Source: Patiria pectinifera
Taxonomy: Eukaryota > Echinodermata > Asteroidea > Valvatida > Asterinidae
Length of the DNA: 64,000 nt
Direction: 5' to 3'
Assembly: GCA_029964075.1 (NCBI GenBank)
Contig: CM057148.1
Location: forward strand, 24,049,916-24,113,915
Shown one piece after another: positions 18,674-61,612 of this stretch (the stretch's first letter is position 1; each line of letters opens with the position of its first letter). The translations under genes and the position numbers were made by a program. Under the pieces are notes generated by a model. That model ran no database searches. It had not been told where the DNA came from and saw only the letters and a list, made by a program, of their open reading frames with translations.

Positions 18674-18789
18674 CTACACGTCGCGACGAGTTTTCGTGCA
18701 AATGAACGGATGTCTGCCGTTCTCCCTTTCCTCTCCACTTCTGTCAAAACTTCGGTGGTATTCTTGTCCAGTGTTGGCGACGAACAATC
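18674..18789 (-). CDS. Gene B exon 5: CTLD C-half and stop
   Basis: Preceded by an AG acceptor in ATTAAG. Encodes 38 residues including [13 protein letters not shown] and EEWENGRHPFICT, ending TRRDV and TAG. The W-x-N-G then PFIC pattern matches the end of C-type lectin domains, where the last Cys pairs with the helix Cys that exon 1 encodes. Confidence 0.8.
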
Positions 18790-21700
18790 CTTAATAAGAA
18801 TGAAAATAGAACCTTATTTGTCAGAAGTTCACAATTAAAAGTTATCAATATTTTTTTTTTCCGTCTCGGGCTAAACAGCTTTTAAAAAGGAAAATTTACC
18901 TGCGTGTTCATGGCTACTGTACAAACCAATTGTTGCTTCCTTTCCTAAAAAAAAAAATACATCCAAAAATAGAAGTGTTAGGAATATGTCACAATTCGAA
19001 GTCATTTTAACACTTTGACATTTTTTTTACTCATTACTTGATCCACACCAGATTGCATTTCCCATGTAAGGTACTCCTTTTGATTCTCATTAGTTTGGTC
19101 GTGTTGTGTTTTATTTGTTTATTTTTTTTCCGGATATACCTTTGCGGATAGATACAGAAGCATTCCTTGAGCCAGAGTTTGCCGTGCAGGTGATGATGTC
19201 GCCCTCAGCAATGGGTCCGTGTCCCTGATCGATGACCAGGGCAGACTGCACCACGCACGGTGAGAAACTGGTCGGGGTAATCTCACAGCCTTCCTCGGTG
19301 GAGTTTCGGCCCAGGTCCTGCCACTGCGATCGCTCTTGGTGGTACACGCTCCAGTAAATAGTGGGTCCAGTAGAGGCGCTTGCCGTGCAAACATAGCGAA
19401 GACTTCCGCTGTTTCCGTAGGTGCTGTCGATGTAGAGGCTGCGGATTTTTAGGCCCCAGTCTGTAGTGACGTATGTGAAAGAATAATACAGATAGAATAA
19501 TGACAAGACTAGGCGATGTATTAGGTGACGTTATGTAGGTCATGTTCCACGCTTCATGTACAGTACACTCAAATAACCATGGGAGTTAAAGGTCAAAGGT
19601 TATGTGAATATGCTGCGTCCCATTACATCCCCTTTTGAGAACAAAATCTATGAATGAAAGTGAGGGATAAATCTAGATTTTGTAGCAAAATTTGAAAGAC
19701 AATGAATTGTCCTCTATGTCTAAGGAATGGACTAATCGCCTTATTGTCACCTAATTTGCTGAGCCAAGTGGGACACTTTTCTACTTTGTTGTTTATCATC
19801 AACAACTTTTTTTTAAACTCTTTTTAGGAACTGCAGGAGTGCTGCTCCGAGTCCTTTCAGAGACGCGTCAACCTGTAGCACTGTGGGTTGTCGAGGGTCA
19901 AAGTGGGTGATCGTACGTTCTGTACCGATTAGCGACTTGACATTTTCGACTGCTTTCTGGTTCGATTCTGTCCTCTGCCACTCACTTTCGTTGCGAAGCA
20001 GTGCGCGGAGTGTGTCTGTATGATTAGCGAGTCTGGGGAGAATCGGCGCGGGGTATTGCATCAGACCCAGAAACTGCTGAAGTTCGTTGACATTCTGCGG
20101 TGCAGGAAGTGCATGTATGTCTTGCACCTTCTCCGGGTCGGGGTGCACACCAGAGGCATCGTAGAGGCATCCGAAGAACTTCATGCAAGGGGTTCTTACC
20201 TCACACTTGCTGAGATTGAAGATCAGGCCGTACTTGCGAGCGACTTGCATGAGGTTGTGCAAGTGTTTGTCATGTTCTTCGACTGTTGTACCGAAGACTG
20301 CAATATCATCTACAATCCCGAAAGTTCCAGGGCGTTGCTCCAGGTTCATGCCCATTTTCTCCTGGAGGATATTCTGGGAGACTTTCAGCCCGAAGGGTAG
20401 AAGACGGAAACGATACCGTCCGAATGGCGAATTGAAGGTTGTCAAGACACTGGACTCCTCATCCAGCACGATGCTCCAGTACCCACGTCGTGCATCCAGC
20501 TTGCTGAACACTTTAGCGCTACTGAACTGATGCGTGATTTCTTCCAGTGTTGACGTGTTGTGTTATATGTCCGCTTGGAGGCTTTGTTCGGTGCCTGTGG
20601 GTCTAGGCACACTCAAAGACTGCAAATGGGCTTTCTGCTGAATGCCAGTGACGAAACCCAGTCTGTGGGCTTCGTGACCTTGGTAATGACATTCAGGCCT
20701 TTCAATCTGTCCAGTTCAGTCTTAAGCTCCTCCTTGATCTGGATTGGGTACTTTCCTGGAAGATGTACGGCCGGACATGCATCCTCTCGTAGCGTGATAT
20801 GGTATTCACCGGGGAATTTACCAATCCCAGTGAAGCGATCAGGATACATGGTTTGGAGGTCATCCTTCGTTGGTATTGGCTGGATGGGCTCGCGTCGTGT
20901 CTGCGATGTGCGACGAACACCCACGGAACTGTCACTGCGTCGCGGTGTTTCGCGTATCGAACAGTTGAGAGTGATGAGGTGGAGAGCTCGTTAGGTCTGA
21001 AGTTCGAGGATTGCCAGACCCGTAGTATCGACGACGATGAAATCTGCGGCAAGCCAGTCTGTCTCACCGTAGCTGCATGGCATCTTGACGCATCCATATT
21101 GTTGAATTCGGACCCCATTGTAGGCTGAGAGAAGCGTACTTTACGGTGTAGTGGAGCCCGGCCGAGGATACCCATATGCGTCCAGTGATCGTGGAAACAT
21201 GTGTCGAAATTAGCGAAGGGGGAGTATGTTCCCCTGTGCACCTGTGTCGACCTTGACATTAAGCGTGTGTGATTTAGGACGATGTTTGAGTTTGATGCGA
21301 AGTATTGCGAAAAGGTCATCGCGAGTATCAGATGAACGCCCAACGGCATCCTGATTGTGCTGGGCTGTGATGGTGTGGAAAGCGATGTTCTCAAACTGGT
21401 GCTGCATATCAGTCACTTCATACTCAACCACGTTTACCTCGTTGGATTTACGAGGTTTGTAACGCGATGAAGACAGACGACCGCATTTAGGTGAGTATGA
21501 TCCCCCGGTACGCGAACGTGATTTGCGAGTGCTTCGAGGTTTAGTCTTAGTGCCTGCTGTACTGAGACACATGTGTTGCCAGTGTCCCTCTTTACCGCAA
21601 CCATTGCATTCTGTGCCATATGCAGGGCACTTATCGCGAGGTCGATATGGGTGTCTTCCAACACAGTTTTTTCATTGTCTCTGCGTCTTGACGACGTCCA

Positions 21701-23668
21701 CTTGGGCCTTTCCAATATGACTAAGCTGTGCCATATGTATGACACTGCCTTCATGTGCTCGTTAAATGTCCAAGGCGTCTTTGAGTTGCAGTTTGTCATC
21801 CTCTCGTAGCACCCGTTATCCACGGAGCCAAATTTCCTGTATAACGTCTGATATGTCTTGACATGCAGATATAGGCAAACCGCGCGCCAGCCAATCGGAG
21901 TCGACTTTTCATTCCCAAATCAAGACTAAATGGTTGATTGGTCATTTCGAAGGCAGTGTTTTGTAATACAACAGCCGGGCGCATTATCGCGTAACATGAT
22001 ACAGAGCGCGTTTTTTTTATCCATTGTCTATGACGCGCAACGGGTGAATGACAGAAGACCTGATATAGAAAGCGCCCGCCGATTGGCCAAAATCTAGGAG
22101 GTCAAGAGGCGGGGTCTTGCCTTATTAATCAGCGAATCTGCTCACGCATAATAGACCATGGCTTTCACCATGGTCTATTACATAGACTAGGAAGGACCAT
22201 GACACAAGATATTCCAAAGAAAACGCAATATGAATGTGGGCAAATATTTCGCAAGGGCTCTGTGAAACAGAGGTTGAGTCAAGAGTTTACGTGTACTATC
22301 TAAGAATTATTCACTTTATAAATATTACGGACAGTGATGATCTTCAGTTTTAGGTGCCGGTATATTGAAAGCGAAACTCACCAAGTGACCCGCAGGCGTA
22401 GAGGTTGGCTATCTGTTCCTCGGTGAGGAGATGATCAAATACCATCAGATTGCTGTAGGCTGCCGAACCTCCGAAATTCAGAGATGAGGGCGGTGGCATT
22501 CCAACGCAGGGATTCATGCTCCCTAAAACCAGCCTGGTACATCCATCTCTAGGCGAGTCTTCTCCTTCATTTAGATTGTAACTGCCAAGCTCCTTGCCGT
22601 CCAGGTACAGGACAAGTTGGGCATTTGTTGGTGAAAGAACCATGGTAGCGGCCATGTGGAACCATTTATCCATCGGGATCTTGCCCAGCGTCTCGTACCT
22701 CTGAAAGTATGACCACGATTCACTCCGAGCTGCGAAGACGAAAGCGTTGAGCGAGTTCCTGTACAGAAAGGCGACGCCCCGTGCTCCTCTTGATCTAGCT
22801 CCCGCTGAAACAAAATAACTATCACGGGTAAAACCTGCCGAAGAGTTGATTTTGAGCCACAGTGACCAGGTCACGCTATCTGAGGCACACACGTCAGGAT
22901 CAGAGACGCAAGTCCCGGCAAAATCGCCCAGGTCGATGTAGGCACCCTTTCCGGCGTAAATCGAGCAATTTTGCTCAACCACGTCGGGAGAGGGAACCAT
23001 TTTGGAGACACCTGTGCCAATCTCGCTCCTAGAGATCGGAACTGGCGAGTCATAAGCATCGCATGATGTGAAGTGACTACCAGTCTCACGAGTCGCACTC
23101 AGTGTATTGTAGTAGGTCATGTTGTAACTCTCTGAAAAGAAAACAAACAAAAATCAATCGATTGGAACTTTGGTCTAATCATTAGAGTCACAACCAATGC
23201 CTCAATCCTGGACACACTTCATCTTTACTCCTTAAGCCAGGAGTTGATGTTCAGAATATAATACAACTGGCGATAACGAACATTCTCCTTCTTTCGTTGT
23301 TTTTTTTTTTCTGGATATAACTTACCAAATGGTACGTCCGCTTTCTTGCCCAACCAGACATACTCAGGGGCAGCCTCAGACGTATTTATTTCACTTAAGA
23401 TGATGTCCAAGTAGTAAATAAGGAATATCGTCTCCTCTTGGGAGTTGGCCGTAAGTAAACCACCTGCCACGTCCCTCGCGGCATAGCGTTGGCAGTACGC
23501 CTCAGCTTCGTCATACGAAAGAGGAACAGGAAAGTAGCGATAGCAATGATGCGGATGCTCCATCCATTGAAACGGGCACGGGGAACATGCGGCTTGGCAT
23601 ACGCCGATCATTGTAGAAAAAGCCACAGTGATGGCGGTATAAAGTTTGATGAGAAACATGCCTTCCAT
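18674..23668 (-). CDS. Gene B: split-CTLD/LamG/Ig secreted lectin-like protein
   Basis: Five coding exons on the minus strand: 23,668-23,326, 23,131-22,382, 19,460-19,140, 18,944-18,900 and 18,789-18,674, giving 524 residues. All sites are GT-AG and all introns phase 1. Order: signal peptide ending near CQA, N-half of a C-type lectin domain, LamG-like domain, Ig-like domain, a 15-residue exon, and a C-terminal exon with EEWENG..PFIC. The Met chosen (MEGMF) aligns with the start of gene A. An upstream in-frame Met lies 17 codons earlier, before the signal peptide. Intron 2 (3 kb) holds a gypsy fragment. Expected to be secreted. A recognition or immune role is inference from the domains only. 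Confidence 0.85.
18900..18944 (-). CDS. Gene B exon 4 (45 bp)
   Basis: A 45-base exon between TTTTAG and GTAAAT, phase 1 on both sides, encoding [15 protein letters not shown]. Exactly conserved in length in all four gene copies, with only one- or two-residue differences. Confidence 0.8.
19140..19460 (-). CDS. Gene B exon 3: Ig-like domain
   Basis: A 321-base exon, phase 1 on both sides. Ig-type core: Cys in LRYVCTAS, Trp in TIYWSVYHQ twelve residues later, second core Cys in ITCTANSGS. An extra Cys pair lies in [12 protein letters not shown]. Nearly identical to the Ig exon of gene A, although the LamG and CTLD exons of A and B differ much more. Confidence 0.85.
19813..21823 (-). mobile_element. 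Ty3/gypsy fragment in gene B intron 2
   Basis: Minus strand, Gag C-end to start of RNase H. Visible: protease DTGAQGN (near 21,220), RT fingers and palm (20,924-20,613 and 20,511-19,813) with the active-site VDDIAVFG block, the FLGLMQY connection, and the first RNase H Asp in LQVDASLKGLGAALL. It stops at an A-rich run (T-run 19,807-19,815 on this strand). No integrase and no LTR are present. Several frameshifts. It sits in the same orientation as gene B. Confidence 0.85.
22151..22181. repeat. Short perfect inverted repeat
   Basis: TAATAGACCATGG and CCATGGTCTATTA are separated by six bases, giving a 13-bp stem hairpin. It lies in gene B intron 2, just upstream of the gypsy fragment, and is kept in the other arm near 58,143-58,173. 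Confidence 0.75.
22382..23131 (-). CDS. Gene B exon 2: LamG-like jellyroll domain
   Basis: A 750-base exon, phase 1 on both sides, after TCTTTTCAG and before GTGAGT. After a short lead (ESYNMTYYN) it shows the LamG-like/concanavalin fold pattern: [53 protein letters not shown], and [22 protein letters not shown]. Six to seven differences separate it from the right-arm copy, mostly around YNLNEGEDS. Confidence 0.88.
23326..23668 (-). CDS. Gene B exon 1: signal peptide and CTLD N-half
   Basis: The hydrophobic leader ends at VCQA. Then CPFQWMEHPHHCYRYF gives the extra N-terminal Cys pair of long-form C-type lectin domains. [13 protein letters not shown] is the helix with the first core Cys, and YVWLGKKAD is the WIG-like strand. 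The exon ends at VPF-G, phase 1. The loop region with the second Cys pair and the C-terminal FIC are not here. The 194-bp intron after it has no room for them. Confidence 0.88.
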
Positions 23669-24924: not shown

Positions 24925-24925
24925 T

Positions 24926-25419: not shown

Positions 25420-25589
25420 TAATTACTATTTCACCTGCTTAAGGCAGACACTGGTCAATAATGAACACTTGTTAGTTGCATTTATCTGCCAAATGAGGTA
25501 ACCATGCCAATCTAACCATTGCAGCCACATGTCTCAATTGCCAACCTGTGTGTTGCATCCACCTGTTCATAATTATCATGTCTTCAAAA

Positions 25590-29022: not shown

Positions 29023-29030
29023 CCCGTCCA

Positions 29031-29896: not shown

Positions 29897-30170
29897 CCCG
29901 TCCAGCATTGACCTCACACTGCACTGTGAAGAGCGTCACAACCTTGCTTGACAACCAATCACGTAGCACTATTTCGACTCCCCCTGTAAGTTGTCACACA
30001 TAAATTGGCCAATGAGAGCGCTTGAAAATCTGTCAGTTTCGCGGGTAATTGGTACAACGTAAAGTTATCTTTTTTTACGTGCAGATAAGCCATTAAAAGA
30101 TTGCATATAATTATATACCGCCCTCAACAGCAGAACAAAGGTGAACAATAAAGAAAAGCAGCCCATAAAT

Positions 30171-30286
30171 CTACATGTCGCGACGAGTTTGCGTGCAAAT
30201 GAACGGATAACTGCCGTTCTCCCATTCCTCTCCACTTCTGTCAAAACGTCTGTAGTATTCTTGTCCAGTGTTGGCAACGAACAATG
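30171..30286 (-). CDS. Gene A exon 5: CTLD C-half and stop
   Basis: Acceptor AAAG, then 38 residues with [13 protein letters not shown] and [14 protein letters not shown], ending in TRRDM and TAG. The second Cys pair usual in the long loop of C-type lectin domains is absent, leaving only the Cys that would pair with Cys 58 from exon 1. Confidence 0.8.
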
Positions 30287-33200
30287 CTTTAAAAGGATGA
30301 AAAAAATGAAGAAAAAAAACTTATTTGCAAGGGTTTCAAAATTTAAAGTTATCAATAATTATCCTCTTTTCGGCTAAACGACTTTTATAATGGGAAATTT
30401 ACCTGCGTTTTCATGGCTACTGTACAAACCAATTGTTGCTTCCTTTCCTGAAAATCATACAAAACAAAATACAAAAAGTTTTAGGCATATGTCACATTTC
30501 GAAGTCATTTTAACACTCTGGCATTCTTTTAATCATTACTTGACCCACACCAGATTGCATTTCCCATGTAAGCTACACAATCAAATAAAAACGGCAAAGA
30601 TCAACATATTGATACGTCCCCTTTTGATTGTCATTAGTTAGGTCGTGTTGTGTTTTATTTATCTTTTTTTTCTGCATATACCTTGGCGGATAGATACAGA
30701 AGCATTCCTTGAGCCAGAGTTTGCCGTGCAGGTGATGATGTCGCCCTCAGCGATGGGTCCGTGTCCCTGATCGATGACCAGGGCAGACTGCACCACGCAC
30801 GGTGAGAAACTGGTCGGGGTAACCTCACAGCCTTCCTCGGTGGAGTTTCGGCCCAGGTCCTGCCACTGCGCTCGCTCTTGGTGGTACACGCTCCAGTAAA
30901 TAGTGGGTCCAGTAGAGGCGCTTGCCGTGCAAACATAGCGAAGACTTCCGCTGTTTTTGTAGGTGCTATCGATGTAGAGGCTGCGCATTTTTAGGTCCCA
31001 ATCTGAAGAGACGTTCAACGGGTATATAGAATTAAATGATTTCAAATCCATTTTCCGTTATCAAAAAAAAAGAGTTCAGGCACTATATATCAAAAACAAA
31101 TTAGGTTTTCGCCAATTTTTTTTGTTCACGTGTGGGGCAGATTAGTACACAGGACGTGTGCATTTGCCATGCATGGTTCTTGGACCATTCTACAGTTTAT
31201 AGTACATCTTATGCATACTGCAGAGGGGGCTTATTTAAGCAATGTGAAATAGAGATGATGGAGCATCCATCTGTACATTTAGGTTTAGTGTACTCCAGAA
31301 TATACTAAGCCGTCTCCAATCCATATCAAAAAAAAAATCCTACTCACCAAGTGACCCGCAGGCGTAGAGGTTGGCTATCTGTTCCTTGGTGAGGAGATGA
31401 TCAAATACCATTAGATTGCTGTAGGCTGCCGAACCTCCGGAGGACAGCGATGAGGGCGGTGGAAATCCATCACAGGGATTCATGCTCCCTAAAACCAACC
31501 TGGTACATCCATCATTAGGCGAAAACCTTTCTGTTTCATTATCGTAACTGCCAAGCTCCTTGCCGTCCAGGTACAAGACAAGTGCATTTGTTGGTGACAG
31601 ATCCACAGTAGCGGCCAGGTGGAACCATCTATCCATCGGAATCTTATTCGTCTCGTACTTCAGATAGTATGTCCACGATTCACTCCGAGCTCCGAACAAG
31701 AATTTGTTATCCGAGTTTCTGTACGCGAAGAAGATGCCCCGTCCTCTCCACGTACGTCCTCCCACTGAAACAAAATAACTATCATGGGTAAAACCTGCCG
31801 AAGAGTTGATTTTGAGCCACAGTGACCAGGTCACGCTTTCTGAGGCACACACGTCAGGATCAGAGACGCAGGTCCCTGCGAAATCGCCCAGGTCGATGTA
31901 GGCACCCTCTCCGGTGTAAATCGAGCATTTCTGCTGAACCACTTCGGGGGAAAGAACCATGTTGTAGACACCTGTGCCAATCTCACTTTTATTGATCGCA
32001 ACAGGTGAATCATAAGCATCGCATGATGTGAAGTGACCACTTGTCTCAGCATTGGAACCCAGTGTATTGTGGTAGATCATGTTGTACCTCTCTGGGAAGA
32101 AAAAAAAAAGGTATTTTTTTTGTAATTCAGTGATGACAAATTGTTTCCTGTCATTGTATTGAGAGTTTTATGCACGGAAGCTCTGAATACAAATTGAATA
32201 GTGTGAATTTACTGCTGAAAGAGTCATGACTGCGGTGATTGCTGAATGGTAGATGGGAAGGGAATTATAACAAATTTGACGACGGGCTATACTCCGTTCA
32301 GTAAGGTATCCATGGATTTTTTTATTAGGTCACTCGGCAGCAGTAAAATCAAACTGTGGAATTTTTGCTGACAGGGCGACTATTTTGCCAAAAAAAAAGA
32401 ACAATGGGAAGGGAGGACCCTACTCTCTAAATTCCAAAGAGTGAAAAAAAATCGCTCCATTGGAGTGAAGATTCACTCCCACGTCGGAAACTAGGGACTG
32501 GACGTTTTAGAGTGAAATTTCTTCAATCGTAAAGATCGAGTTTTCACTCGAGCTTCGACTGAAGTGGTTCATTTTTCAGGTCTTCATTGCCTTACACCTG
32601 ACGGTTATGAACTTCTGCTGACATGGCGAGAAAAAAAATCACGACAATTTTTATGTGTTCATATTTTTACCTGACGGAGGAAGCTGAAATTTTCTTTTAC
32701 ACATTCCTTGTGGCCAGAATTACAAAGATGATTGGTTTAGAAAAAGTAAATAATGTCCGTGGGCGATGACGTGTTTATCGAAAACATATCGCAGTTGCAC
32801 GCTTTCGTCGTAACCAACCTCGGTAGGAATCCCTGCAGCAAGACCCCCTGACCAGCAGCATCTTCAAAGATATCGCACCGATACGTGCCTTCCGTCGCCA
32901 TAAATCCGTCACCGATCAACTGGTTCGATCAACGCCTCATCAATCGTCCTACACTCCAGGGTCCACCCCGGCAAAACAGAACCTTGCCACCGTACGCGCT
33001 GCATGAAATGCCAGTATGTGGACCCTTCTTTAACCTATTGTAGACCCAAAAGGACACTCCCACTACCCTGCATCACCTGCAACTTGGTGTATGCCATCAT
33101 CTGCCAACAGTGCAAACAGCTCTGTACATTGGTGAGGCTAACGGCGTTTGGGAGACCGGTTCGAGGAGCACTTAGGAAGCGTGAAAAGAAAGAACATTGA

Positions 33201-36200
33201 CACCTGTTGGGCAATATTTCTCTACCCCACCCCACTCAATTGAAGACATAATCTCTTAATCCAAAGAGTAAAAATTCACTCCATTCGAGTGAAGATTCAC
33301 TCCCAGAGTCGGAAACTAGGGACTGGACGTTTTAGAGTGAAATGCCTTCAATCGTTAAGATCGAGTTTTCACAGGAGCTTCGACTGAAATGGTTCTTTTT
33401 TTCAGACTATTTCAATCGAAAATGAGAGTGATTTTCACTCTAAAATGTCTAGTCCCTAATTTCACTCTTTGGAATTTAGAGAGTATGCACGTCTTATGTG
33501 TCTTGGCAACCGTGCAGACTGAGGAAATGCGGAAGGAGCGGGAGCAGCGTCTGATATGCCACCTTGGAACGCTGTTCCCGTGTGGCATCAACGTCGAGTT
33601 CTCCGCGTTTCCTTCTTAGTAGTAGTAGCAACATTTATTTCAATGATGCCATTCATTACAATTGTGTACAATCATATATATATATTCGAAAATGTCACTA
33701 GTAATAATATTTGATAGTTATGTACACAGTGATTAATAACATAGTGTAAAATTAAATGACAACATTTAGGTATAAGGTTAAGCAGAACGCTTTTGTGCCC
33801 TTACCTGTGGACAAACATACAACCAAAGTACTGTATTAAGGGACAAACAAAACACTACGTGAGACAGACAGGACAAGTGTGAGACAAGGCCTAAATATCA
33901 ATGCACAAAGTAATAACATTTCAATTTATGAATATGATTCAAGAAAATTAGTTTTTGAATTGTTGACAAAGACCGATAGTGTGGGTAATGATTTAAAGGG
34001 AATATACAACATTTGCAAACATCGATGAAAACACTTTTTTTACGAAAAACCTTACTAGGATGTTGGTAAATGACAGTTTAAAGCATCCTGTAAAATTATG
34101 GCACCAGGTGTGAAGTCATTTTCAAGAAAATTGGTATTTTGTATAAATTTTCAACGGTGATCGGCCAACCACCGTAGGAAAAACATGACTATTTCTCAAC
34201 TACTGCTCCAATTTACCATTTTTGTTCAGTCCAAGTTTTGTTTGCTATTGGTTACATGTTCATGAACGGGTGCAGGCCAGCTAGACTGGTTCCCTTGCCT
34301 TACAATTTTCCATCATCTATAAATTGATCCATTTTATCTTTTGTGGAGTCAGGGAACCAGACTACTTGAACAATTTTGTTTTTCTTGGTTTTTCCAACCT
34401 TTTCGTACACAAAATTTTAAAAATGTCAGTGTAACAATATTTGATCTATTATACTAACCCCTCAAATAGTTCATTTCTGAAAATTACAGCAAAAGCCAAT
34501 GATGTACATTCACTTTAAATTGAACGAACACTTTTCCCCTTGCACTACTTCGAATGTTATATACATGAATGTTAGATGCTAATGTAAAACAAGTATTAAA
34601 ACAGGACGGGAGTAAATTATGCATAAATGTATACATTAATTCTCCTAAATGAAGGTAATATAAGTCATTACATTGTAATATATTTAATTTAGCAAATAAT
34701 GGAGCAGAATGATCACGATAGTCAGCATTTGAAATTACACGAACTGCTCGCTTCTGTAAAGTAAGTTATTTGTTACACTTAGATGGCAAACTACGCCAGG
34801 TCAAAATTGAGTAATTTAAGTATGGTAAAACAAATCAATTATACAATGTTCATAAAATCTTACTCGGACGGTAATATTTCAAACGATTTATTACTCCAAT
34901 GTTCTTTGATGTTTTTGTCGCTAGTTCATCAATATGATTTTTCCAAGTGAGATTTTCATCAATAGTTACACCCAGGAATTTAGTTATCTTAACCTGATTA
35001 AGCCTTGAGAGGAATGAACATATTGAGTGTACTTGTACTGATTGGCACAAAAAATCGTATAATTTGACTTGACGACATTAATACATAATTTATTTTGCGA
35101 GAAGCCATGTACTGATCTTTTCAAGTTCCATGTTTAGGTTACTAATTGCTTCATCTACATTAGCGTAAGTATACAACAAACTTACGTATCATCTGCAAAT
35201 AAACAACATGTTGTGGTGTCTGAGGTGTTACATATGCCATTAATATAAAGAAGAAATAGTTAAGGACTCAACACGGCACCCTGAGGTACTCCACACGTAA
35301 TGAATCGGCTAGTTGAAGTTACAGATTGAAACGATACATACTGGTTTCTGTTACACAGATAACTTTTTCAGTAGGTCAAAAGCTGTTCCCCGCACTCCGT
35401 AATGTTCTAATTTACTTATAAGAATATCGTGATTTACAGTATCAAATGCTTTTGATAAGTCCAAGAAAATGCCTCAACTGCATTACATAATTTGTTAATT
35501 ACACACGATATCTCTATTTCAGTTGAACGATTTCGTCTAAATCCAAATTGAGACTCGGAGAGAATATTATTTTTAGTAAAAGATACTAATCGTTTATAAA
35601 TAAGGGTCTATAGTTGGTAATGTCATGCTTACAACCTTATTTTTATAGATCGGTGTTACTTGGGCTATTTTTAGATCATCGGGAAAAATTCCAGCTGTCA
35701 AACACTTGTTTAAAATGTCAGCCAAAGGCTGAGCTGAAGAATATCGTGCTTGTTTGATGACAGAAGAACTTAAACCATCAAATCCAGGGGCCTTCCCAGA
35801 AGGTATTTTGTTAAAGTAATCAACAACCTCTTCCTTGGTAAAAGGTGTAAAAAAAAACCCAGTGAATTTGGACATTTGTTGCGTATAGAAACGAATTAAA
35901 GTAACTGTTACATAACGGGAGTTCTCTGGAGAGGCTACTGCCGATGTTCACAAGGTAGTTGTTAAATGCTTCTTCAATTTCCGACCATGCTCCATAGGAA
36001 AGCGCACAAAGTACGGCAGATAGTTGTTTATCGTGAACCGGATAGCAACTGTGTTGCATACGCGTGCGTTGGTTTTCACACGAGAAGTTCATAATGAGCA
36101 GGGAACTGATGATCTTTACGACGAAGGCGTGGATCTGCGATTTATTTTCGGTAAACACGTCGCCGACGGATAAGTTTACTTTTTCTAAACTAAGCATCTT

Positions 36201-36790
36201 TGTAATTCTGGACACAATGCATATGTAAACGAAAAAATCAACTTCCTCCACCATAAAAAAATATGAAAACAAAGATTGTAATAATTATAATCGCCAGGGC
36301 AACAGCAGTTTATACCCTGGACTCCGTCGCGTGTACACAACGGAGGAGTCCAACCTGGGCTAGGAGGACCCCATCCACCTATACCGACGCCGCTGGGTGC
36401 ATGCAGTGCAGCGACTACATTTCAAAGCCATTGCAGTTGGTATAACTTACCGAACGTTTCCTTTGATCCCTTAGCCAACCACACAAAGCTGGTGGTATTA
36501 CCCAACTGTGTTGTTCCATTTAGGATTCCTCCAACGTAGTCAATCAAAAACATCGTCTCCTTCAGGGAATTGACCATTGTAAGACCACCTGACCCGCCTT
36601 GCTTTGAATAACGCTGACAGTACGCCTCAGCTTCATCATACGAGAGAGAAACAGGAAAGTAGCGATAGCAGTGATGCTGATGCGCCATCCATTGAAACGG
36701 GCACGGGGAGCATGCGGCTTGGCATACGCCAATCATTGCAAGCAAAGCCAGAGTGATGGCAGCAATTCTGATGAGAAACACGTGTTCCAT
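30171..36790 (-). CDS. Gene A: split-CTLD/LamG/Ig secreted lectin-like protein
   Basis: Five minus-strand coding exons: 36,790-36,451, 32,091-31,348, 31,002-30,682, 30,447-30,403 and 30,286-30,171, giving 521 residues. GT-AG sites throughout, every intron phase 1. Signal peptide 1-25, CTLD N-half 26-113 (Cys 30, 41, 58), LamG-like about 169-355, Ig-like 362-468 (Cys 386 and 453, Trp 398), small exon 469-483, CTLD C-half 484-521 (Trp 505, Cys 514). It has no transmembrane helix after the leader, so it is probably secreted. Intron 1 (4.4 kb) holds a LINE, a Penelope remnant and a MITE. Tandem paralogue of gene B. The function is not known to me. Confidence 0.85.
30403..30447 (-). CDS. Gene A exon 4 (45 bp)
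   Basis: Encodes [15 protein letters not shown] between TTTTCAG and GTAAAT, phase 1 on both sides. The intron before it is 234 bp here. It is enlarged by a 913-bp hAT-like insertion in the right-arm copy. Confidence 0.8.
30682..31002 (-). CDS. Gene A exon 3: Ig-like domain
   Basis: 321 bases, phase 1 on both sides, acceptor CTCTTCAG. Core Cys 386, Trp 398 and Cys 453 fit an Ig fold. A further Cys pair (420, 430) lies within it. The last codons (CGC CAA G) differ from the other copies (CGC AAA G). Confidence 0.85.
31348..32091 (-). CDS. Gene A exon 2: LamG-like jellyroll domain
   Basis: 744 bases, phase 1 on both sides. Same pattern as gene B ([51 protein letters not shown]). Only five residue differences from the right-arm copy (such as H/R, L/P, E/D, Y/F, M/I). 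Confidence 0.88.
32422..32600. repeat. MITE end, solo copy
   Basis: CTCTCTAAATTCCAAAGAGT followed by GGAAACTAGGGACTGGACG matches one end of the MITE at 33,250-33,485, in direct orientation. Together they bracket the 5' part of the Penelope remnant. Confidence 0.6.
32940..33619 (+). pseudogene. Penelope-like element, GIY-YIG end, broken
   Basis: A zinc-finger-like block, [18 protein letters not shown] (33,070-33,120), is followed out of frame by a YIGE-like piece. The C-terminal block [20 protein letters not shown] ends in TAG at 33,619. This order is typical of the GIY-YIG endonuclease at the end of Penelope-like polymerases. A MITE splits it at 33,250-33,485. It lies on the strand opposite to gene A, in intron 1. 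The sequence before it (32,640-32,930) is of unclear origin and has a diverged inverted match at 36,100-36,270. Confidence 0.65.
33250..33485. mobile_element. TA-flanked MITE inside the Penelope remnant
   Basis: Inverted ends: ATCTCTTAATCCAAAGAGT at the left, and ACTCTTTGGAATTTAGAGAG at the right. A second inverted pair with GGAAACTAGGGACTGGACG-like sequence lies inside. TA on both outer sides suggests a mariner-type target. Confidence 0.65.
33620..35990 (-). mobile_element. Non-LTR retrotransposon (LINE), 5'-truncated
   Basis: Minus-strand reverse transcriptase in pieces: [20 protein letters not shown] then [12 protein letters not shown] (near 35,850-35,750), [16 protein letters not shown] (near 35,440), the LFADDT catalytic block (near 35,190), and [20 protein letters not shown] (34,980-34,920). 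A long 3' tail ends in AATAAATGTTGCTACTACTA at 33,620, directly against the Penelope stop. Jockey/CR1-type by motif spacing. Stops and shifts make it inactive. The right contig begins inside this element. Confidence 0.8.
36100..36270. repeat. Diverged inverted copy of 32,640-32,830
   Basis: TTTACGACGAAGGCGTGGAT and the CTTTGTAATTCTGG block match the reverse complement of 32,640-32,830. In both places an open piece with the pattern F-x-E-N-x-S-Q-x-H-A-F-V-V can be read. I do not recognise the family. Confidence 0.5.
36451..36790 (-). CDS. Gene A exon 1: signal peptide and CTLD N-half
   Basis: Leader [20 protein letters not shown], cleavage probably after VCQA. It then has the same CTLD N-half landmarks as gene [27 protein letters not shown] and [12 protein letters not shown], then GTAAGT, phase 1. 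The WLA in place of WLG is a small departure. One codon shorter than gene B. The right-arm partner is missing because that contig starts downstream in intron 1. Confidence 0.88.
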
Positions 36791-46649: not shown

Positions 46650-47393
46650 AGAGGTACAACATGATCTACCACAATACACTGGGCTCCAATGCTGAGACAA
46701 GTGGTCGCTTCACATCATGCGATGCTTATGATTCTCCTGTTGCGATCAATAAGAGTGAGATTGGCACAGGTGTCTACAACATGGTTCCTTCCCCCGAAGT
46801 GGTTCAGCAGAAATGCTCGATTTACACCGGAGAGGGTGCCTACATCGACCTGGGCGATTTCGCAGGGACCTGCGTCTCTGATCCTGACGTGTGTGCCTCA
46901 GATAGCGTGACCTGGTCACTGTGGCTCAAAATCAACTCTTCGGCAGGTTTTACCCATGATAGTTTTTTTGTTTCAGTGGGAGGACGTACTTGGAGAGGAC
47001 GGGGCATCTTCTTCGCGTACAGAAACTCAGATAACAAATTCTTGTTCGGAGCTCGGAGTGAATCGTGGACATACTATCTAAAGTACGAGACGAATAAGAT
47101 TCCGATGGATAGATGGTTCCACCTGGCCGCTACTGTGGATCTGTCACCAACAAATGCACTTGTCTTGTACCTGGACGGCAAGGAGCTTGGCAGTTACGAT
47201 AATGAAACAGAAAGGTTTTCGCCTAATGATGGATGTACCAGGCTGGTTTTAGGGAGCATAAATCCCTGCGATGGATTTCCACCGCCCTCATCGCTGTCCT
47301 CCGGAGGTTCGGCAGCCTACAGCAATCTGATGGTATTTGATCATCTCCTCACCAAGGAACAGATAGCCAACCTCTACGCCTGCGGGTCACTTG
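46650..47393 (+). CDS. Gene A' exon 2: LamG-like domain
   Basis: 744 bases like gene A, acceptor TTCTTCCCAG, donor GTGAGT. Five residue differences from gene A and none that break the fold pattern. Confidence 0.85.
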
Positions 47394-49490
47394 GTGAGTA
47401 TGATTTTTTTTTGATATGGATTGGAGACGGCTTAGTATATTCTGGAGTACACTAAACCTAAATGTACAGATGGATGCTCCATCATCTCTATTTCACATTG
47501 CTTAAATAAGCCCCCTCTGCAGTATGCATAAGATGTACTATAAACTGTAGAATGGTCCAAGAACCATGCATGGCAAATGCACACGTCCTGTGTACTAATC
47601 TGCCCTACACGTGAACAAAAAAAATTGGCGAAAACCTAATTTGTTTTTGATATAGTGCCTGAACTCTTTTTTTTTTGATAACGGAAAATGGATTTGAAAT
47701 CATTTAATTCTATATACCCGTTGAACGTCTCTTCAGATTGGGACCTAAAAATGCGCAGCCTCTACATCGATAGCACCTACAAAAACAGCGGAAGTCTTCG
47801 CTATGTTTGCACGGCAAGCGCCTCTACTGGACCCACAATTTACTGGAGCGTGTACCACCAAGAGCGATCGCAGTGGCAGGACCTGGGCCGAAACTCCACC
47901 GAGGAAGGCTGTGAGGTTACCCCGACCAGTTTTTCACCGTGCGTGGCGCAGTCTGCACTAGTCGTCGATCAAGCACACGGATCCATCGCTGAGGGCGACA
48001 TGATCACCTGCACGGCAAACTCTGGCTCAAGGAATGCTTCTGTATCTATCCGCAAAGGTATATCCAGAAAAGAAAGATAAATAAAACACAACACGACCAA
48101 ACTAATGACAATCGAAAGGGGACGTATCAATATTTTGATCTTTGCCGTTTTTATTTGATTGTGTAGCTTACATGGGAAATGCAATCTGGTGTGGGTCAAG
48201 TAATGACAGAGGTGGCAGCAAGTCATTTTTTGTAAGTCCAAGTCAAGTCACAAGTCACTGTTTGCAAGTCCAAGTCAAGTCACAAGTCATTAGGTCCAGT
48301 CACAAGTCAAGTCACAAGTCATTAGGTCCAGTCACAAGCCAAGTCACAAGTCATTTGGTCTAAACACAAGTCAAGTCATAAGTATCTTTGTTCAAGAACA
48401 CGTCAAGTTGCACATTATTTGTCCAGCTGTAATAAGCTAAAAGAACCTGGCGTTTGAACTTACAAATTATTTTTAACATGCCTCCTTAATTCCCCTTTTT
48501 CAATGTGTTGTAATTACTATTCTTGTAGTTTATCACATATCCGTCGGATATTAGCCCTTTGTTTACTTTAATAAATTTACTTTACATTGTAGAAATAAAG
48601 GTTGAGATGACATGAAAAAAAGACTTCACTCACTCGATCAATTTTCATGTATACTAAACGCCTACCAATGGGTTAGGCTATCCGGTATTTTACATGCAAT
48701 TGACAAAGGCCTGCTTTCTTTTCATGAAAGATTCCTTTCAAAAGTTGTTCAACCATTACGTTTAGCAAGAGACTTGGTCATTGAAAACTGTAGTTTGTTG
48801 TGACAGTCTTATTGAAAACTTTTGAAACTAGTGGGAACTATATTCATTTTACTGGATTCAGTCACTGAGGTCTATTTTCTGGAATGAAACTTTCTCGCTA
48901 TTACACTTAATTAAAGTGTATTGGTAGCTCGAGTAGCGTCTGACTTGCGTTGGTAACAAGTCATTTTTGCAATCCCAAGTCAAGTCACAAGTCATTGTTT
49001 GCAAGTCCAAGTCAAGTCACAAGTCAAAGCTGGTATCTACAAGTCAAGTCACAAGTCACAAAAATAGGGACTCGAGTCCGACTCGAGTCCAAGTCACATG
49101 ACTCGAGTCAGCAACTCTGAGTAATGATTAAAAGAATGCCAGAGTGTTAAAATGACTTCGAAATGTGACATATGCCTAAAACTTTTTGTATTTTGTTTTG
49201 TATGATTTTCAGGAAAGGAAGCAACAATTGGTTTGTACAGTAGCCATGAAAACGCAGGTAAATTTCCCATTATAAAAGTCGTTTAGCCGAAAAGAGGATA
49301 ATTATTGATAACTTTAAATTTTGAAACCCTTGCAAATAAGTTTTTTTTTCTTCATTTTTTTCATCCTTTTAAAGCATTGTTCGTTGCCAACACTGGACAA
49401 GAATACTACAGACGTTTTGACAGAAGTGGAGAGGAATGGGAGAACGGCAGTTATCCGTTCATTTGCACGCAAACTCGTCGCGACATGTAG
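46650..49490 (+). CDS. Gene A', right-arm copy of gene A (5' end missing)
   Basis: Exons 46,650-47,393 (LamG), 47,737-48,057 (Ig), 49,213-49,257 and 49,375-49,490, all phase 1 with GT-AG sites. The signal-peptide/CTLD N-half exon is not in the window because the contig begins inside intron 1. No frame disruption is seen. Intron 3 carries a recent hAT-like insertion. Its Ig exon differs from gene A at several sites (CVAQSALVVDQAHGSIAEGD). Probably the other allele of gene A. Confidence 0.8.
47737..48057 (+). CDS. Gene A' exon 3: Ig-like domain
   Basis: 321 bases. The Ig core Cys and Trp are kept. Differences from gene A cluster between the two C-terminal cysteines: V/A, I/V, G/A, P/S and I/M changes within 25 residues. 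Confidence 0.85.
48207..49119. mobile_element. hAT-like element, right arm only, 913 bp
   Basis: Starts CAGAGGTGGCAGCAAGTC and ends TCAGCAACTCTG. It is flanked by AGTAATGA (48,199-48,206 and 49,120-49,127), an 8-bp target duplication. Both ends carry arrays of CAAGTCAAGTCACAAGTC and GACTCGAGTC units. The matching place in the left arm (near 30,530) has a single AGTAATGA, a clean empty site. No transposase frame. Confidence 0.85.
49213..49490 (+). CDS. Gene A' exons 4 and 5
   Basis: Exon 4 is 49,213-49,257 and exon 5 is 49,375-49,490. Translations are identical to gene [16 protein letters not shown], then the block with [14 protein letters not shown] ending in TRRDM and TAG. Confidence 0.8.
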
Positions 49491-56653: not shown

Positions 56654-56996
56654 ATGGAAGGCATGTTTCTCATCAAACTTTATACCGCCATCACTGTGGC
56701 TTTTTCTACAATGATCGGCGTATGCCAAGCCGCATGTTCCCCGTGCCCGTTTCAATGGATGGAGCATCCGCATCATTGCTATCGCTACTTTCCTGTTCCT
56801 CTTTCGTATGACGAAGCTCAGGCGTACTGCCAACGCTATGCCGCGAGGGACGTGGCAGGTGGTTTACTTACGGCCAACTCCCAAGAGGAGACGATATTCC
56901 TTATTTACTACTTGGACATCATCTTAAGTGAAATAAATACGTCTGAGGCTGCCCCTGAGTATGTCTGGTTGGGCAAGAAAGCGGACGTACCATTTG
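56654..56996 (+). CDS. Gene B' exon 1: signal peptide and CTLD N-half
   Basis: Same as gene B except EAQAYC for EAEAYC. Ends at CCATTTG before GTAAGT. Confidence 0.88.
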
Positions 56997-59900
56997 GTAA
57001 GTTATATCCAGAAAAAAAAAACAACGAAAGAAGGAGAATGTTCGTTATCGCCAGTTGTATTATATTCTGAACATCAACTCCTGGCTTAAGGAGTAAAGAT
57101 GAAGTGTGTCCAGGATTGAGGCATTGGTTGTGACTCTAATGATTAGACCAAAGTTCCAATCGATTGATTTTTGTTTGTTTTCTTTTCAGAGAGTTACAAC
57201 ATGACCTACTACAATACACTGAGTGCGACTCGTGAGACTGGTAGTCACTTCACATCATGCGATGCTTATGACTCGCCAGTTCCGATCTCTAGGAGCGAGA
57301 TTGGCACAGGTGTCTCCAAAATGGTTCCCTCTCCCGACGTGGTTGAGCAAAATTGCTCGATTTACACCGGAGAGGGTGCCTACATCGACCTGGGCGATTT
57401 TGCCGGGACTTGCGTCTCTGATCCTGACGTGTGTGCCTCAGATAGCGTGACCTGGTCACTGTGGCTCAAAATCAACTCTTCGGCAGGTTTTACCCGTGAT
57501 AGTTATTTTGTTTCAGCGGGAGCTAGATCAAGAGGAGCACGGGGCGTCGCCTTCCTGTACAGGAACTCGCTCAACGCTTTCGTCTTCGCAGCTCGGAGTA
57601 AATCGTGGTCATACTTTCAGAGGTACGAGACGCTGGGCAAGATCCCGATGGATAAATGGTTCCACATGGCCGCTACCATGGTTCTTTCACCAACAAATGC
57701 CCAACTTGTCCTGTACCTGGACGGCAAGGAGCTTAGCAGTTACGATCTAAATGAAAGAGAAGACTGGCCTAGAGATGGATGTACCAGGCTGGTTTTAGGG
57801 AGCATGAATCCCTGCGTTGGAATGCCACCGCCCTCATCTCTGAATTTCGGAGGTTCGGCAGCCTACAGCAATCTGATGGTATTTGATCATCTCCTTACCG
57901 AGGAACAGATAGCCAACCTCTACGCCTGCGGGTCACTTGGTGAGTTTGGCTTTCAATATACCGGCACCTAAAACTGAAGATCATCACTGTCCGTAATATT
58001 TATAAAGTGAATAATTCTTAGATAGTACACGTAAACTCCTGACTCAACCTCTGTTTCCCAGAGCCCTTGCGAAATATTTGCCCACATTCATATTGCGTTT
58101 TCTTTGGAATATCTTGTGTCATGGTCCTTCCTAGTCTATGTAATAGACCATGGTGAAAGCCATGGTCTATTATGCGTGAGCAGATTCGCTGATTAATAAG
58201 GCAAGACCCCGCCTCTTGACCTCCTAGATTTTGGCCAATCGGCGGGCGCTTTCTATATCAGGTCTTCTGTCATTCACCCGTTGCGCGTCATAGACAATGG
58301 ATAAAAAAACGCGCTCTGTATCATGTTACGCGATAATGCGCCCGGCTGTTGTATTACAAAACACTGCCTTCGAAATGACCAATCAACCATTTAGTCTTGA
58401 TTTGGGAATGAAAAGTCGACTCCGATTGGCTGGCGCGCGGTTTGCCTATATCTGCATGTCAAGACATATCAGACGTTATACAGGAAATTTGGCTCTGCGG
58501 ATAACGGGTGCTACGAAAGGATGACAAACTGCAACTCAAAGACGCCTTGGACATTTACCGAGCACATGAAGGCAGTGTCATGCATATGGCACAGCTTAGT
58601 CATATTGGAAAGGCCCAAGTGGACGTCGTCAAGACGCAGAGACAATGCAAAAACTGTGGTGGAAGACACCCATATCGACCTCGCGATAAGTGCCCTGCAT
58701 ATGGCACAAGATGCATTGGTTGCGGTAAAGAGGGACACTGGCAACACATGTGTCTCAGTACAGCAGGCACTAAGACTAAACCTCGAAGCACTCGCAAATC
58801 ACGTTGGCGTACCAGGGGATCATACTCTCCTAAATGCGGTCGTCTGTCTTCATCGCGTTACAAACCTCGTAAATCCAACGAGGTAAACGTGGTTGAGTAT
58901 GAAGTATGAAGTGTTTGAGAACATCGCTTTCCACACCATTACAGCTCAGCACAATCACGATGACGTTGGGCGTTCATCTGATACTCGCGATGACCTTTTC
59001 GCAATACTTCGCATCAAACTTAAACATCGTCCTCGATCACACACGCTTAATGTCAAGGTCGACACAGGTGCACAGGGGAACATACTCCCCCTTCGCTAAT
59101 TTCGACACATGTTTCCGCGATCACTGGACGCAGATGGGTATCCTCAGCCGGGCTCCACTACATCGCAAAGTACGCTTCTCACAGCCTACAATGGGGTCCG
59201 AATTCAACAATACGGATGCGTCAAGATGCCATGCAGCTACGGTGAGACAGACTGGCTTGCCGCAGTACGGGTCTGGCAATCCTCGAACTTCAGACCTAAC
59301 GAGCTCTCCACCTCATCACTCTCAACTGTTCGATACGCGAAACACCGCGACGCAGTGACAGTTCCGTGGGTGTTCGTCGCACATCGCAGACACGACGCGA
59401 GCCCATCCGGCCAATACCAACGAAGGATGACCTCCAAACCATGTATCCTGATCGCTTCACTGGGATTGGTAAATTCCCCGGTGAATACCATATCACGCTA
59501 CGAGAGGATGCATGTCCGGCCGTACATCCTCCAGGAAAGTACCCAATCCAGATCAAGGAGGAGCTTAAGACTGAACTGGACAGATTGAAAGACCTGAATG
59601 TCATTACCAAGGTCACGAAGCCCACAGACTGGGTTTCGTCACTGGCATTCAGCAGAAAGCCCATTTGCAGTCGTTGCGTGTGCCTAGACCCACAGGCACT
59701 GAACAAAGCCTCCAAGCGGACATATAACACAACACGTCAACACTGGAAGAAATCACGCATCAGTTCAGTAGCGCTAAAGTGTTCAGCAAGCTGGATGCAC
59801 GACGTGGGTACTGGAGCATCGTGCTGGATGAGGAGTCCAGTGTCTTGACAACCTTCAATTCGCCATTCGGACGGTATCGTTTCCGTCTTCTACCCTTCGG

Positions 59901-61612
59901 GCTGAAAGTCTCCCAGAATATCCTCCAGGAGAAAATGGGCATGAACCTGGAGCAACGCCCTGGAACTTTCGGGATTGTAGATGATATTGCAGTCTTCGGT
60001 ACAACAGTCGAAGAACATGACAAACACTTGCACAACCTCATGCAAGTCGCTCGCAAGTACGGCCTGATCTTCAATCTCAGCACGTGTGAGGTAAGACCCC
60101 TTGCATTAAGTTCTTCGGATGCCTCTACGATGCCTCTGGTGTGCACCCCAACCCGGAGAAGGTGCAAGACATACATGCACTTCCTGCACCGCAGAATGTC
60201 AACGAACTTCAGCAGTTTCTGGGTCTGATGCAATACCTCGCGCCGGTTCTCCCCAGACTCGCTGATCATACAGACACACTCCGCGCACTGCTACGCAACG
60301 AAAGTGAGTGGCAGAGGACAGAATCGAACCAGAAAGCAGCCGAAAATGTCAAGTCGCTAATCGGTACAGAATGTACGCTCACCCACTTCGACCCTCGACA
60401 ACCCACAGTGCTACAGGTTGACGCGTCTCTGAAAGGACTCGGAGCAGCACTCCTGCAGTTCCTAAAAAGAGTAAAAAAAAAAAAAGTTGTTGATGATAAA
60501 CAACAAAGTAGAAAAGTGTCCCACTTGGCTCAGCAAATTAGGTGACAATTAGGCGATTAGTTCATTCCTTAGACATAGAGGAGAATTCATTGTTTTTCCA
60601 ATTTCGCTACAAAATCTAGTTTTATCCCTCACTTTCATTCATAGATTTTGTTCTCAAAAGGGGATGTAATGGGACCATGCATATTCATGTAACATATGAC
60701 CTATACCTCCCATGGTTACTTGATTGTACTGTACATGAGGCGTGGAACATGACCTACATAACTTCACCTAATACATCGCCTAGTCTTGTCATTATTCTAT
60801 CTGTATTATTCTTTCACATACGTCACTACAGACTGGGGCCTAAAAATCCGCAGCCTCTACATCGACAGCACCTACGGAAACAGCGGAAGTCTTCGCTATG
60901 TTTGCACGGCAAGCGCCTCTACTGGACCCACTATTTACTGGAGTGTGTACCACCAAGAGCGAGCGCAGTGGCAGGACCTGGGCCGAAACTCCACCGAGGA
61001 AGGCTGTGAGATTACCCCGACCAGTTTCTCACCGTGCGTGGTGCAGTCTGCCCTGGTCATCGATCAGGGACACGGACCCATCGCTGAGGGCGACATCATC
61101 ACCTGCACGGCAAACTCTGGCTCAAGGAATGCTTCTGTATCTATCTGCAAAGGTATATCCGGAAAAAAATAAACAAATAAATCACAACACGACCAAACTA
61201 ATGAGAATCAAAAGGGGGTACCTTACATGGGAAATACAATCTGGTGTGGATCAAATAATGAGTAAAAAAAATGTCAAAGTGTAAAAATGACTTCGAATTG
61301 TGACATATGCCTAACACTTCTATTTTTTGCTGTATTTTTTTTTAGGAAAGGATGCAACAATTGGTTTGTACAGTAGCCATGAACACGCAGGTAAATTTCC
61401 CTTTTTAAAAGCTGTTTAGCCCGAAACGGAAAAATTATTGATAACTTTTAATTCTGAACTTCTTGCAAATAAGTTTCTATTTTCATTCTTATTAAGGATT
61501 GTTCGTTGCCAACACTGGACAAGAATACCACCGAAGTTTTGACAGAAGTGGAGAGGAATGGGAGAACGGCAGACATCCGTTCATTTGCACGAAAACTCGT
61601 CGCGACGTGTAA
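56654..61612 (+). CDS. Gene B', right-arm copy of gene B
   Basis: Five exons: 56,654-56,996, 57,190-57,939, 60,832-61,152, 61,346-61,390 and 61,497-61,612. They match gene B in every exon length and phase, giving 524 residues without disruption. It carries the same gypsy fragment in intron 2. Differences from gene B are a handful of substitutions per exon. They include SVSICKG for SVSIRKG at the end of the Ig exon, which adds a Cys, and a TAA in place of the TAG stop. Probably the other allele of gene B. Confidence 0.85.
57190..57939 (+). CDS. Gene B' exon 2: LamG-like domain
   Basis: 750 bases. Compared with gene B: IYTGEG for IYAGKG, SKSWS for SESWS, and ELSSYDLNEREDWP for ELGSYNLNEGEDSP. 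The last cluster lies in the loop after the LYLDGKE strand. Confidence 0.88.
58500..60545 (+). mobile_element. Ty3/gypsy fragment in gene B' intron 2
   Basis: Counterpart of 21,823-19,813, with clearer Gag. Two nucleocapsid zinc knuckles are seen: CKNCGGRHPYRPRDKC, then CIGCGKEGHWQHMC (58,646-58,750). Protease DTGAQGN follows (near 59,060), then RT (59,366-60,230) with the VDDIAVFG block, and the start of RNase H (to about 60,465), ended by an A-run at 60,472-60,484. No integrase or LTR. Frameshifts near 59,700 and 60,095. Confidence 0.85.
60832..61152 (+). CDS. Gene B' exon 3: Ig-like domain
   Basis: 321 bases, acceptor CACTACAG, donor GTATAT. Ig core intact. Almost identical to the Ig exons of genes A and B. 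Confidence 0.85.
61346..61612 (+). CDS. Gene B' exons 4 and 5
   Basis: Exon 4 is 61,346-61,390 ([15 protein letters not shown]). Exon 5 is 61,497-61,612 (EEWENGRHPFICTK, ending TRRDV then TAA). Confidence 0.8.

What the first reader, a model, noticed from the sequence alone, without database searches (positions are those of the whole stretch)
30171..36790. A C-type lectin domain split by nested LamG and Ig exons
Seen: exon 1 encodes the CTLD N-half (extra Cys pair, helix Cys 58, WLA/WLG strand) and stops before the long loop. The last exon encodes EEWENG..PFIC, the normal end of a CTLD. The LamG (744 bp) and Ig (321 bp) exons lie between. If exon 1 is joined to exons 4 and 5, about 100 residues separate the first and last core Cys, the normal CTLD spacing. 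The optional loop Cys pair is lost as a pair. Known: the first and last core Cys of a CTLD are disulfide-bonded, and some domains tolerate nested insertions. Inference: this is one lectin domain with two other domains inserted in it. I know of no described family with this layout.
Basis: partly seen in the sequence, partly recalled or inferred. Interest (0 to 1): 0.9.

Follow-up and report, generated by a model that had tools for sequence, protein, structure and literature searches.

The report
Half lectin domain in chimeric gene

Summary
The window holds four copies: tandem paralogues A and B, each also in an inverted arm beyond a 500-N gap. Five GT-AG, phase-1 exons are seen in three copies; the fourth starts inside intron 1 and lacks exon 1. 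Frames are open; exon 1 is constrained (mature dN/dS 0.43). In A and A' only 193-194 bp separate exon 1 from LamG, so no lectin exon hides there.

The CTLD first half is solid. That exons 4-5 are its second half is weak: joining them adds nothing to Pfam or custom profile scores. The B and A' tails score 0.9 and 2.1 bits, within the range of shuffles; 14 of 14 real second halves score 23.7-74.8. What remains is a conserved Cys in a terminal FIC motif (about 1% of shuffles) and plausible spacing. Verdict: partly supported; an eroded interrupted CTLD and a half-CTLD fusion are about equally likely.

The parts
36451..36790 (-). Copy B exon 1: signal peptide (by eye) and CTLD first half (helix-1 Cys58, WLA strand); ends phase 1 about 10 residues after the WLA Trp
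   Evidence: GT-AG, phase 1; 27.6 bits, 0 of 1000 shuffles
31348..32091 (-). Copy B exon 2: LamG/ConA-like domain (Pfam Laminin_G_3) with about 70 unassigned residues in front
   Evidence: E 5.2e-14 (residues 74-240 of 247, profile 7-151 of 151)
30682..31002 (-). Copy B exon 3: Ig-like domain (probable)
   Evidence: (weak); Cys-x11-Trp and GDxITC pattern read by eye
30403..30447 (-). Copy B exon 4: 45-nt phase 1-1 micro-exon
   Evidence: found with its splice sites in four of four copies
30171..30286 (-). Copy B exon 5: tail ending in [10 protein letters not shown] plus 7 residues and stop; putative eroded CTLD end
   Evidence: tail profile tests
32092..36450 (-). Copy B intron 1, 4359 bp, with reverse-transcriptase-like ORF pieces; the same intron is 194 and 193 bp in copies A and A'
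   Evidence: (RT-like by eye; no Pfam hit)
18674..23668 (-). Copy A (tandem paralogue): exons 23326-23668, 22382-23131, 19140-19460, 18900-18944, 18674-18789
   Evidence: 524-aa open frame
56654..61612 (+). Copy A' (counterpart of A in the other arm): exons 56654-56996, 57190-57939, 60832-61152, 61346-61390, 61497-61612
   Evidence: 524-aa open frame
46650..49490 (+). Copy B' (counterpart of B): exons 2-5 at 46650-47393, 47737-48057, 49213-49257, 49375-49490; exon 1 absent because this sequence begins within intron 1 after the 500-N gap

Best explanation
A real, compact, constrained five-exon gene for a probably secreted recognition protein, built by phase-1 exon shuffling. Shown: a CTLD first-half exon ending just after the WIGL-type strand is followed by phase 1-1 LamG and Ig-like exons and two small phase-1 exons. 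Inferred: the LamG and Ig modules entered the intron that some CTLD gene groups carry just downstream of WIGL, leaving the CTLD second half at the 3' end, where it eroded until little more than the last strand and its Cys is recognisable. Inferred working: Cys58 of helix 1 bonds to Cys514 in the tail, so the two ends of the protein clamp together, and the intact LamG domain, held out where a CTLD long loop would be, does the ligand binding. The rest of the lectin head, including any calcium site, is gone.
For: One gene: same order, GT-AG sites and phase 1 in every copy where the exon is present; shortest introns 193, 343, 193, 106 bp; open frames; dN/dS A'-B 0.63 (bootstrap 0.47-0.86), mature exon 1 0.43 (0.22-0.79). 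CTLD first half. The exon boundary lies about 10 residues past the WIGL Trp; an intron downstream of WIGL is reported for fish antifreeze-like CTLD genes, with the same positions in groups VII and XII (PMC514892, passages). Tail: one Cys conserved in 4 of 4 copies; an FIC-like motif class that I chose, near the end, arises in 186 (B) and 222 (A') of 20000 shuffles; W-to-last-Cys spacing 55 against 52-66 in 14 CTLDs, 4 of 60 listed PDB matches (125 in all) run through the joined exon 1/exon 4 junction to residue 127-128.
Against: The B and A' tails score 0.9 and 2.1 bits as CTLD second halves, reached by 149 and 61 of 2000 shuffles, while 14 of 14 true second halves score 23.7-74.8 bits. End-anchored test: 36 (B) and 111 (A') of 400 shuffles over the whole second half, 24 and 117 of 400 over its last part. 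Joining gives no gain. No PDB match to the B tail alone at E up to 10. No match listed (60 of 101 and 60 of 125) reaches the last Cys. No W-x-W-x-DG, no WND, no loop Cys; the tail Trp is Arg in copy A. Helix-1 Cys to Trp is 46 residues against 27-34. Tail dN/dS is uninformative (1.97, 0.35-3.11). No RNA evidence.
Confidence: 0.42

Rival explanations
1. Half-CTLD fusion: the first-half CTLD exon was simply shuffled in front of a LamG-Ig gene. The 53-aa tail is an unrelated C-terminal segment and no CTLD is closed; exon 1 serves as a secretion leader and Cys-rich cap, stabilised by its own Cys or by the unassigned start of the LamG exon.
For: The tails (B, A') and the first 60 residues of exon 2 (B, A') fail as CTLD second halves; no convincing CTLD second-half exon elsewhere in the six-frame scan; symmetric phase 1-1 exons make such fusion easy.
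Against: Mature exon 1 is constrained (dN/dS 0.43), which is odd if it cannot fold; a terminal FIC-like motif at CTLD-like spacing would be a coincidence of about 1% (a post hoc figure).
Confidence: 0.36
2. Two products by splicing: the junctions are phase 1, so skipping exons 2-3 gives a 166-aa CTLD-like form and including them gives the 521-aa form; the lectin function, if any, belongs to the short form.
For: Frame compatibility of exon 1 with exon 4.
Against: No RNA data; the splice sites of exons 2-3 are canonical and conserved; the joined short form gains nothing as a CTLD in profile.
Confidence: 0.12
3. Assembly or gene-model artefact: the parts are fragments of separate genes or decaying duplicates, brought together by a misassembled palindrome.
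For: The window has a 500-N gap with inverted arms whose main blocks are 94-99% identical, as unmerged haplotypes would give; Banyai and Patthy argue that domain-architecture differences between two lancelets reflect gene prediction errors, with a Lectin_C-fn2 example, and treat domain truncation as a warning sign (PMC4967905, passages).
Against: The order repeats in diverged paralogues A and B within one gap-free stretch, with open frames and dN/dS below 1.
Confidence: 0.1

Closest known systems
[quoted passage not shown] Pfam Lectin_C), long form with N-terminal Cys hairpin, NKG2D-like start
   Same: Exon 1 has CPxxW...CY, helix-1 Cys and WLA/WLG strand; best PDB matches include NKG2D, CLEC10A, Ly75 and other CTLDs
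   Different: Second half not recognisable; two modules stand where the long loop would begin; 46 residues between helix-1 Cys and the WIGL Trp against 27-34 in 14 CTLDs
LamG_3 / ConA-like lectin domain (Pfam Laminin_G_3)
   Same: Exon 2, E 5.2e-14, profile positions 7-151 of 151
   Different: About 70 extra N-terminal residues in the same exon; odd number of Cys (7 in B, counted by eye)
CTLD plus Ig proteins such as crayfish PcLec3 (PMC4944128, abstract start in the listing)
   Same: A C-type lectin domain and an Ig-like domain in one invertebrate protein
   Different: There the two are described as in tandem; neither LamG nor an interruption is mentioned in the abstract start that I saw
Host domains with nested insertions (PMC13114784, abstract start and passages)
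   Same: Proposed architecture: one domain interrupting another
   Different: Nesting not demonstrated here; a find in that paper's main text gave 0 for C-type and immunoglobulin, and the 4 'lectin' hits lay inside words such as 'reflecting'

Membership tests
CTLD | First half: beta1, helix-1 Cys, alpha2, WIGL strand | tested here: met
   PDB CTLD matches and 0 of 1000 shuffles for B and A'; Pfam is weaker: UL45 26.8 bits (cutoff 27) for B, Lectin_C 14.6 bits (cutoff 22.6) for A'
CTLD | Second half: W-x-W-x-DG, beta3, beta4, beta5 | tested here: not met
   Tails B and A' at or near the level of shuffles where controls are detected; the A tail was not run
CTLD | Helix-1 Cys disulfide to the last Cys | not testable with these tools
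   Both Cys conserved and spacing 101; the bond needs a structure or mass spectrometry
CTLD | Loop Cys pair and calcium/sugar motifs (EPN/QPD, WND) | tested here: not met
   Tail has a single Cys and no such motif, read by eye
Laminin_G_3 (LamG/ConA-like) | Profile match above the curated cutoff | tested here: met
   53.1 bits against cutoff 27.6
Immunoglobulin-like domain | Significant match to an Ig profile or fold | tested here: inconclusive
   No Pfam Ig hit; PDB E 0.037-0.079; AF2 pLDDT 57.4; Foldseek best E 0.37, Ig chains probability 0.12 or less among the 50 listed, a SPRY domain 0.35
Nested domain insertion | Two separated segments form one fold | not testable with these tools

The most novel reading that the evidence does not exclude
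A single CTLD is interrupted just after its WIGL strand by a complete LamG and an Ig-like domain (355 residues), and closed some 400 residues on by a minimal tail that supplies only the last strand and the core Cys: a lectin fold whose variable loop has been replaced by whole binding domains.
Probability: 0.33. Interest if true: 0.72.

Novelty: new variant of a known kind. Interest (0 to 1): 0.4.

Why it matters
If the two ends do close one fold, the CTLD long-loop site would be shown to accept whole domains, a natural precedent for grafting binders onto a lectin scaffold and a new way to evolve recognition proteins. If they do not, the gene is an example of a constrained half-domain, against the rule of thumb that truncated globular domains signal wrong gene models. 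Either way a pair of paralogues for probable secreted recognition proteins is described, and the two readings can be separated by one cDNA and one disulfide map.

Tried and rejected
Hidden CTLD exon between exon 1 and LamG: rejected, since that intron is 194 and 193 bp in A and A'. A six-frame scan of 2764 stop-to-stop pieces of 15 aa or more gave nothing better than E 0.38 with the second-half model, and E 0.35 with the full model apart from exon 1 itself (the print was cut in the middle, at E about 28). CTLD completed by the first 60 residues of the LamG exon: not supported (965 of 1000 shuffles score as high in B, 549 in A'). AF2 of exon 1 alone: pLDDT 39.6, meaningless, not searched further. 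AF2 of the Ig exon: pLDDT 57.4, Foldseek weak. Relatives: exon 1 of A' and the B LamG exon in viral contigs (2 of 8 scans) and the exon 1 alignment in genome contigs: none confirmed; these collections are viral and prokaryotic, so this says little. No whole genome is held. Literature, 9 searches: no listed title or abstract start described a CTLD split by LamG and Ig; most subscription papers are not held, so this is not proof of absence. Species: not determined; lancelet is only a guess.

Limits of the profile controls: of 14 reference CTLDs only one (tunicate TC14) is from an invertebrate, so a clade-specific second half could score lower than the controls suggest; but exon 1 scores 27.6 (B) and 22.3 (A') bits on the same family model.
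Full report
What is there. On the minus strand, 30171-36790 holds five exons with GT-AG introns, every junction in phase 1, encoding 521 aa: exon 1 36451-36790, exon 2 31348-32091, exon 3 30682-31002, exon 4 30403-30447, exon 5 30171-30286. A (18674-23668, minus) and B (the finding) are tandem paralogues. A' (56654-61612, plus) and B' (46650-49490, plus) are their counterparts in an inverted arm that begins after 500 N at 42993-43492. The five main collinear blocks between the arms are 94.2-98.7% identical. The right arm starts at a point matching 34708, inside intron 1, so B' has no exon 1. I read this as two haplotypes scaffolded head to head, but a true palindrome is not excluded.

One gene. 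Exon order, splice sites and phases agree; exons 2-5 are seen in four of four copies and exon 1 in three of four. Intron lengths in A, B, B', A' are: exon 1-2, 194, 4359, not seen, 193; exon 2-3, 2921, 345, 343, 2892; exon 3-4, 195, 234, 1155, 193; exon 4-5, 110, 116, 117, 106. Each intron is therefore short in at least two copies. The tiny exon 4 is confirmed by the alignment of the four copies. A' versus B: whole coding dN/dS 0.63 (bootstrap 0.47-0.86), mature exon 1 0.43 (0.22-0.79), LamG 0.59 (0.39-0.94); Ig exon 1.07 (0.20-3.71) and tail 1.97 (0.35-3.11) have too few changes to tell. So the protein is constrained, including the half-CTLD.

The first half of the CTLD is real. Against PDB sequences, queries of exons 1+4+5 joined match CTLDs: best whole-sequence E 6.3e-12 for B and 8.4e-11 for A', both to an NKG2D chain with two such domains, whose best single stretch is 7.2e-5 and 2.7e-4; CLEC10A follows with 5.8e-6 and 8.5e-6. 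A custom HMM from 14 CTLDs gives mature exon 1 27.6 (B) and 22.3 (A') bits, with 0 of 1000 shuffles reaching either. Pfam is weaker: for B, UL45 (lectin-like) 4.6e-6, 26.8 bits, just under its cutoff of 27, and no Lectin_C; for A', Lectin_C 14.6 bits, under its cutoff of 22.6. The exon stops about ten residues after the WLA/WLG Trp. [quoted passage not shown] The break is thus near a known CTLD exon border; I did not compare phases.

The second half is not recognisable. Joining exons 4-5 to exon 1 does not raise the scores: Pfam UL45 26.8 to 25.6 bits for B and 26.7 to 25.5 for A'; Lectin_C unchanged at 14.6 for A'; custom HMM 26.4 to 25.9 (B) and 21.2 to 20.5 (A'). Replacing the tail by shuffled tails does as well or better in 1345 and 815 of 2000 trials. 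The tails alone score 0.9 and 2.1 bits against a second-half HMM; 149 and 61 of 2000 shuffles reach that (93 and 25 of 1000). Controls: 14 of 14 real second halves, each left out of its own model, score 23.7-74.8 bits with 0 of 1000 shuffles. Five of five submitted to Pfam match Lectin_C at 18.7-36.5 bits, two of them under the cutoff of 22.6, while the window tails match no lectin family. Anchoring the alignment at the final FIC and shuffling the rest: 36 (B) and 111 (A') of 400 shuffles reach the tail score over the whole second half, and 24 and 117 of 400 over the last part. With 8 of the 14 references as controls, 8 of 8 had 0 of 100 shuffles over the whole; over the last part 6 of 8 had 0 of 100, CD69 1 and TC14 6. 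Only tails B and A' were tested; B' equals B, and A, which has Arg for the tail Trp, was not run.

What still speaks for closure. The tail has one Cys, conserved in four of four copies, in an FIC motif seven residues from the end. Endings of a motif class that I chose after seeing it ([FYWHRSVL][IVA]C, 3-12 residues from the end) appear in 186 and 222 of 20000 shuffles, so the 1% is a post hoc figure. Spacing from WIGL Trp to last Cys would be 55, inside the 52-66 of 14 CTLDs; helix-1 Cys to last Cys 101, just above 81-99; helix-1 Cys to Trp 46, well above 27-34. Four of the 60 PDB matches listed (of 125) run across the exon 1/exon 4 junction to residue 127-128; none of the 60 listed (of 101) goes beyond 111, and none listed in either reaches the last Cys. 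A folded half-CTLD without its last strand is unlikely on general grounds, since beta1 pairs with beta5 (fold described in PMC7618208, passages), and exon 1 is constrained.

The modules between. Exon 2 is Laminin_G_3 at 5.2e-14 over residues 74-240 of 247. The first 60 residues of exon 2 are not a CTLD second half either (965 of 1000 shuffles in B, 549 in A'). Exon 3 looks Ig-like by pattern and by a low-confidence model (pLDDT 57.4, six strands), with weak PDB sequence matches (nanobody 0.037, IMP-L2 0.048 and 0.061, antibody 0.079). Foldseek gave 0 of 321 matches at or below E 0.001; the first five rows are Ig-type chains or complexes that hold them (E 0.37 and up, probability 0.08 or less), but the most probable of the 50 listed rows is a SPRY domain (0.35). 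I treat exon 3 as probable Ig, not proven.

Function. The N-terminus reads as a signal peptide and no transmembrane segment is apparent after it (both by eye; no predictor was run), so the product is probably secreted. The LamG domain is the likeliest ligand-binding part. Calcium-dependent sugar binding by the CTLD is not expected, because the loop and WND region is absent. An immune or recognition role is an inference from the modules and the paralogy.

Context in print. Banyai and Patthy argue that domain-architecture differences between two lancelets probably reflect gene prediction errors, one example being a Lectin_C-fn2 fusion refuted by ESTs, and treat drastic truncation of a domain as a warning (PMC4967905, passages). 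Here the repeated copies answer part of that warning. The nested-insertion survey PMC13114784 (abstract start and passages) has no C-type or immunoglobulin in its main text. Nine searches listed no paper whose title or abstract start describes a CTLD split by LamG and Ig.

Verdict. Real gene, a combination I did not find described, natural exon shuffling. Split-CTLD reading possible (about one in three as a closed fold), half-CTLD fusion about as likely. The spliced structure and a cDNA are decisive and could not be had here.

Noticed in passing
16312-34708 versus 43493-64000, gap 42993-43492: Large inverted repeat around 500 N; five main collinear blocks 94.2-98.7% identical, most likely two haplotypes scaffolded head to head, otherwise a real palindrome.
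   Followed up: partly
30618-31014 versus 60820-61217 (and 19076-19472): Paralogues A and B are mosaic: Ig exon with flanking intron about 95% identical, while exon 1 is 73% and LamG 86% at DNA level (A' versus B); looks like a gene-conversion tract.
   Followed up: partly
19816-20562 and 59728-60225: Retrotransposon pieces in intron 2: in copy A RVT_1 (6.9e-17) and RT_RNaseH_2 (6.9e-9), in copy A' RVT_1 (9.3e-14); a further long frame nearby at 21437-21919 had no Pfam match.
   Followed up: partly
34484-36284: Reverse-transcriptase-like ORF pieces in intron 1 of copy B, recognised by eye; no Pfam match in the pieces scanned.
   Followed up: partly
3114-4331 and 6972-8030, minus strand: Two tandem rhodopsin-type GPCR open frames (Pfam 7tm_1, 3.3e-28 and 2.8e-22) in a duplicated block 2747-5183 / 6450-8881; the second matches only profile positions 2-215 of 260.
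   Followed up: partly
26493-27753 and 51907-53708: Tandem array of roughly 220-bp units present in both arms (blastn self-comparison).
   Followed up: no
18674-18789 and 60832-61152: Copy A has Arg for the tail Trp (EERENG); copy A' has Cys for Arg near the end of the Ig exon (SICK against SIRK/SIRQ), an extra Cys.
   Followed up: no
48058-49212: Intron 3 of B' is about 0.9 kb longer than in B, with AAGTCACAAGTC-type repeats in the extra stretch.
   Followed up: no
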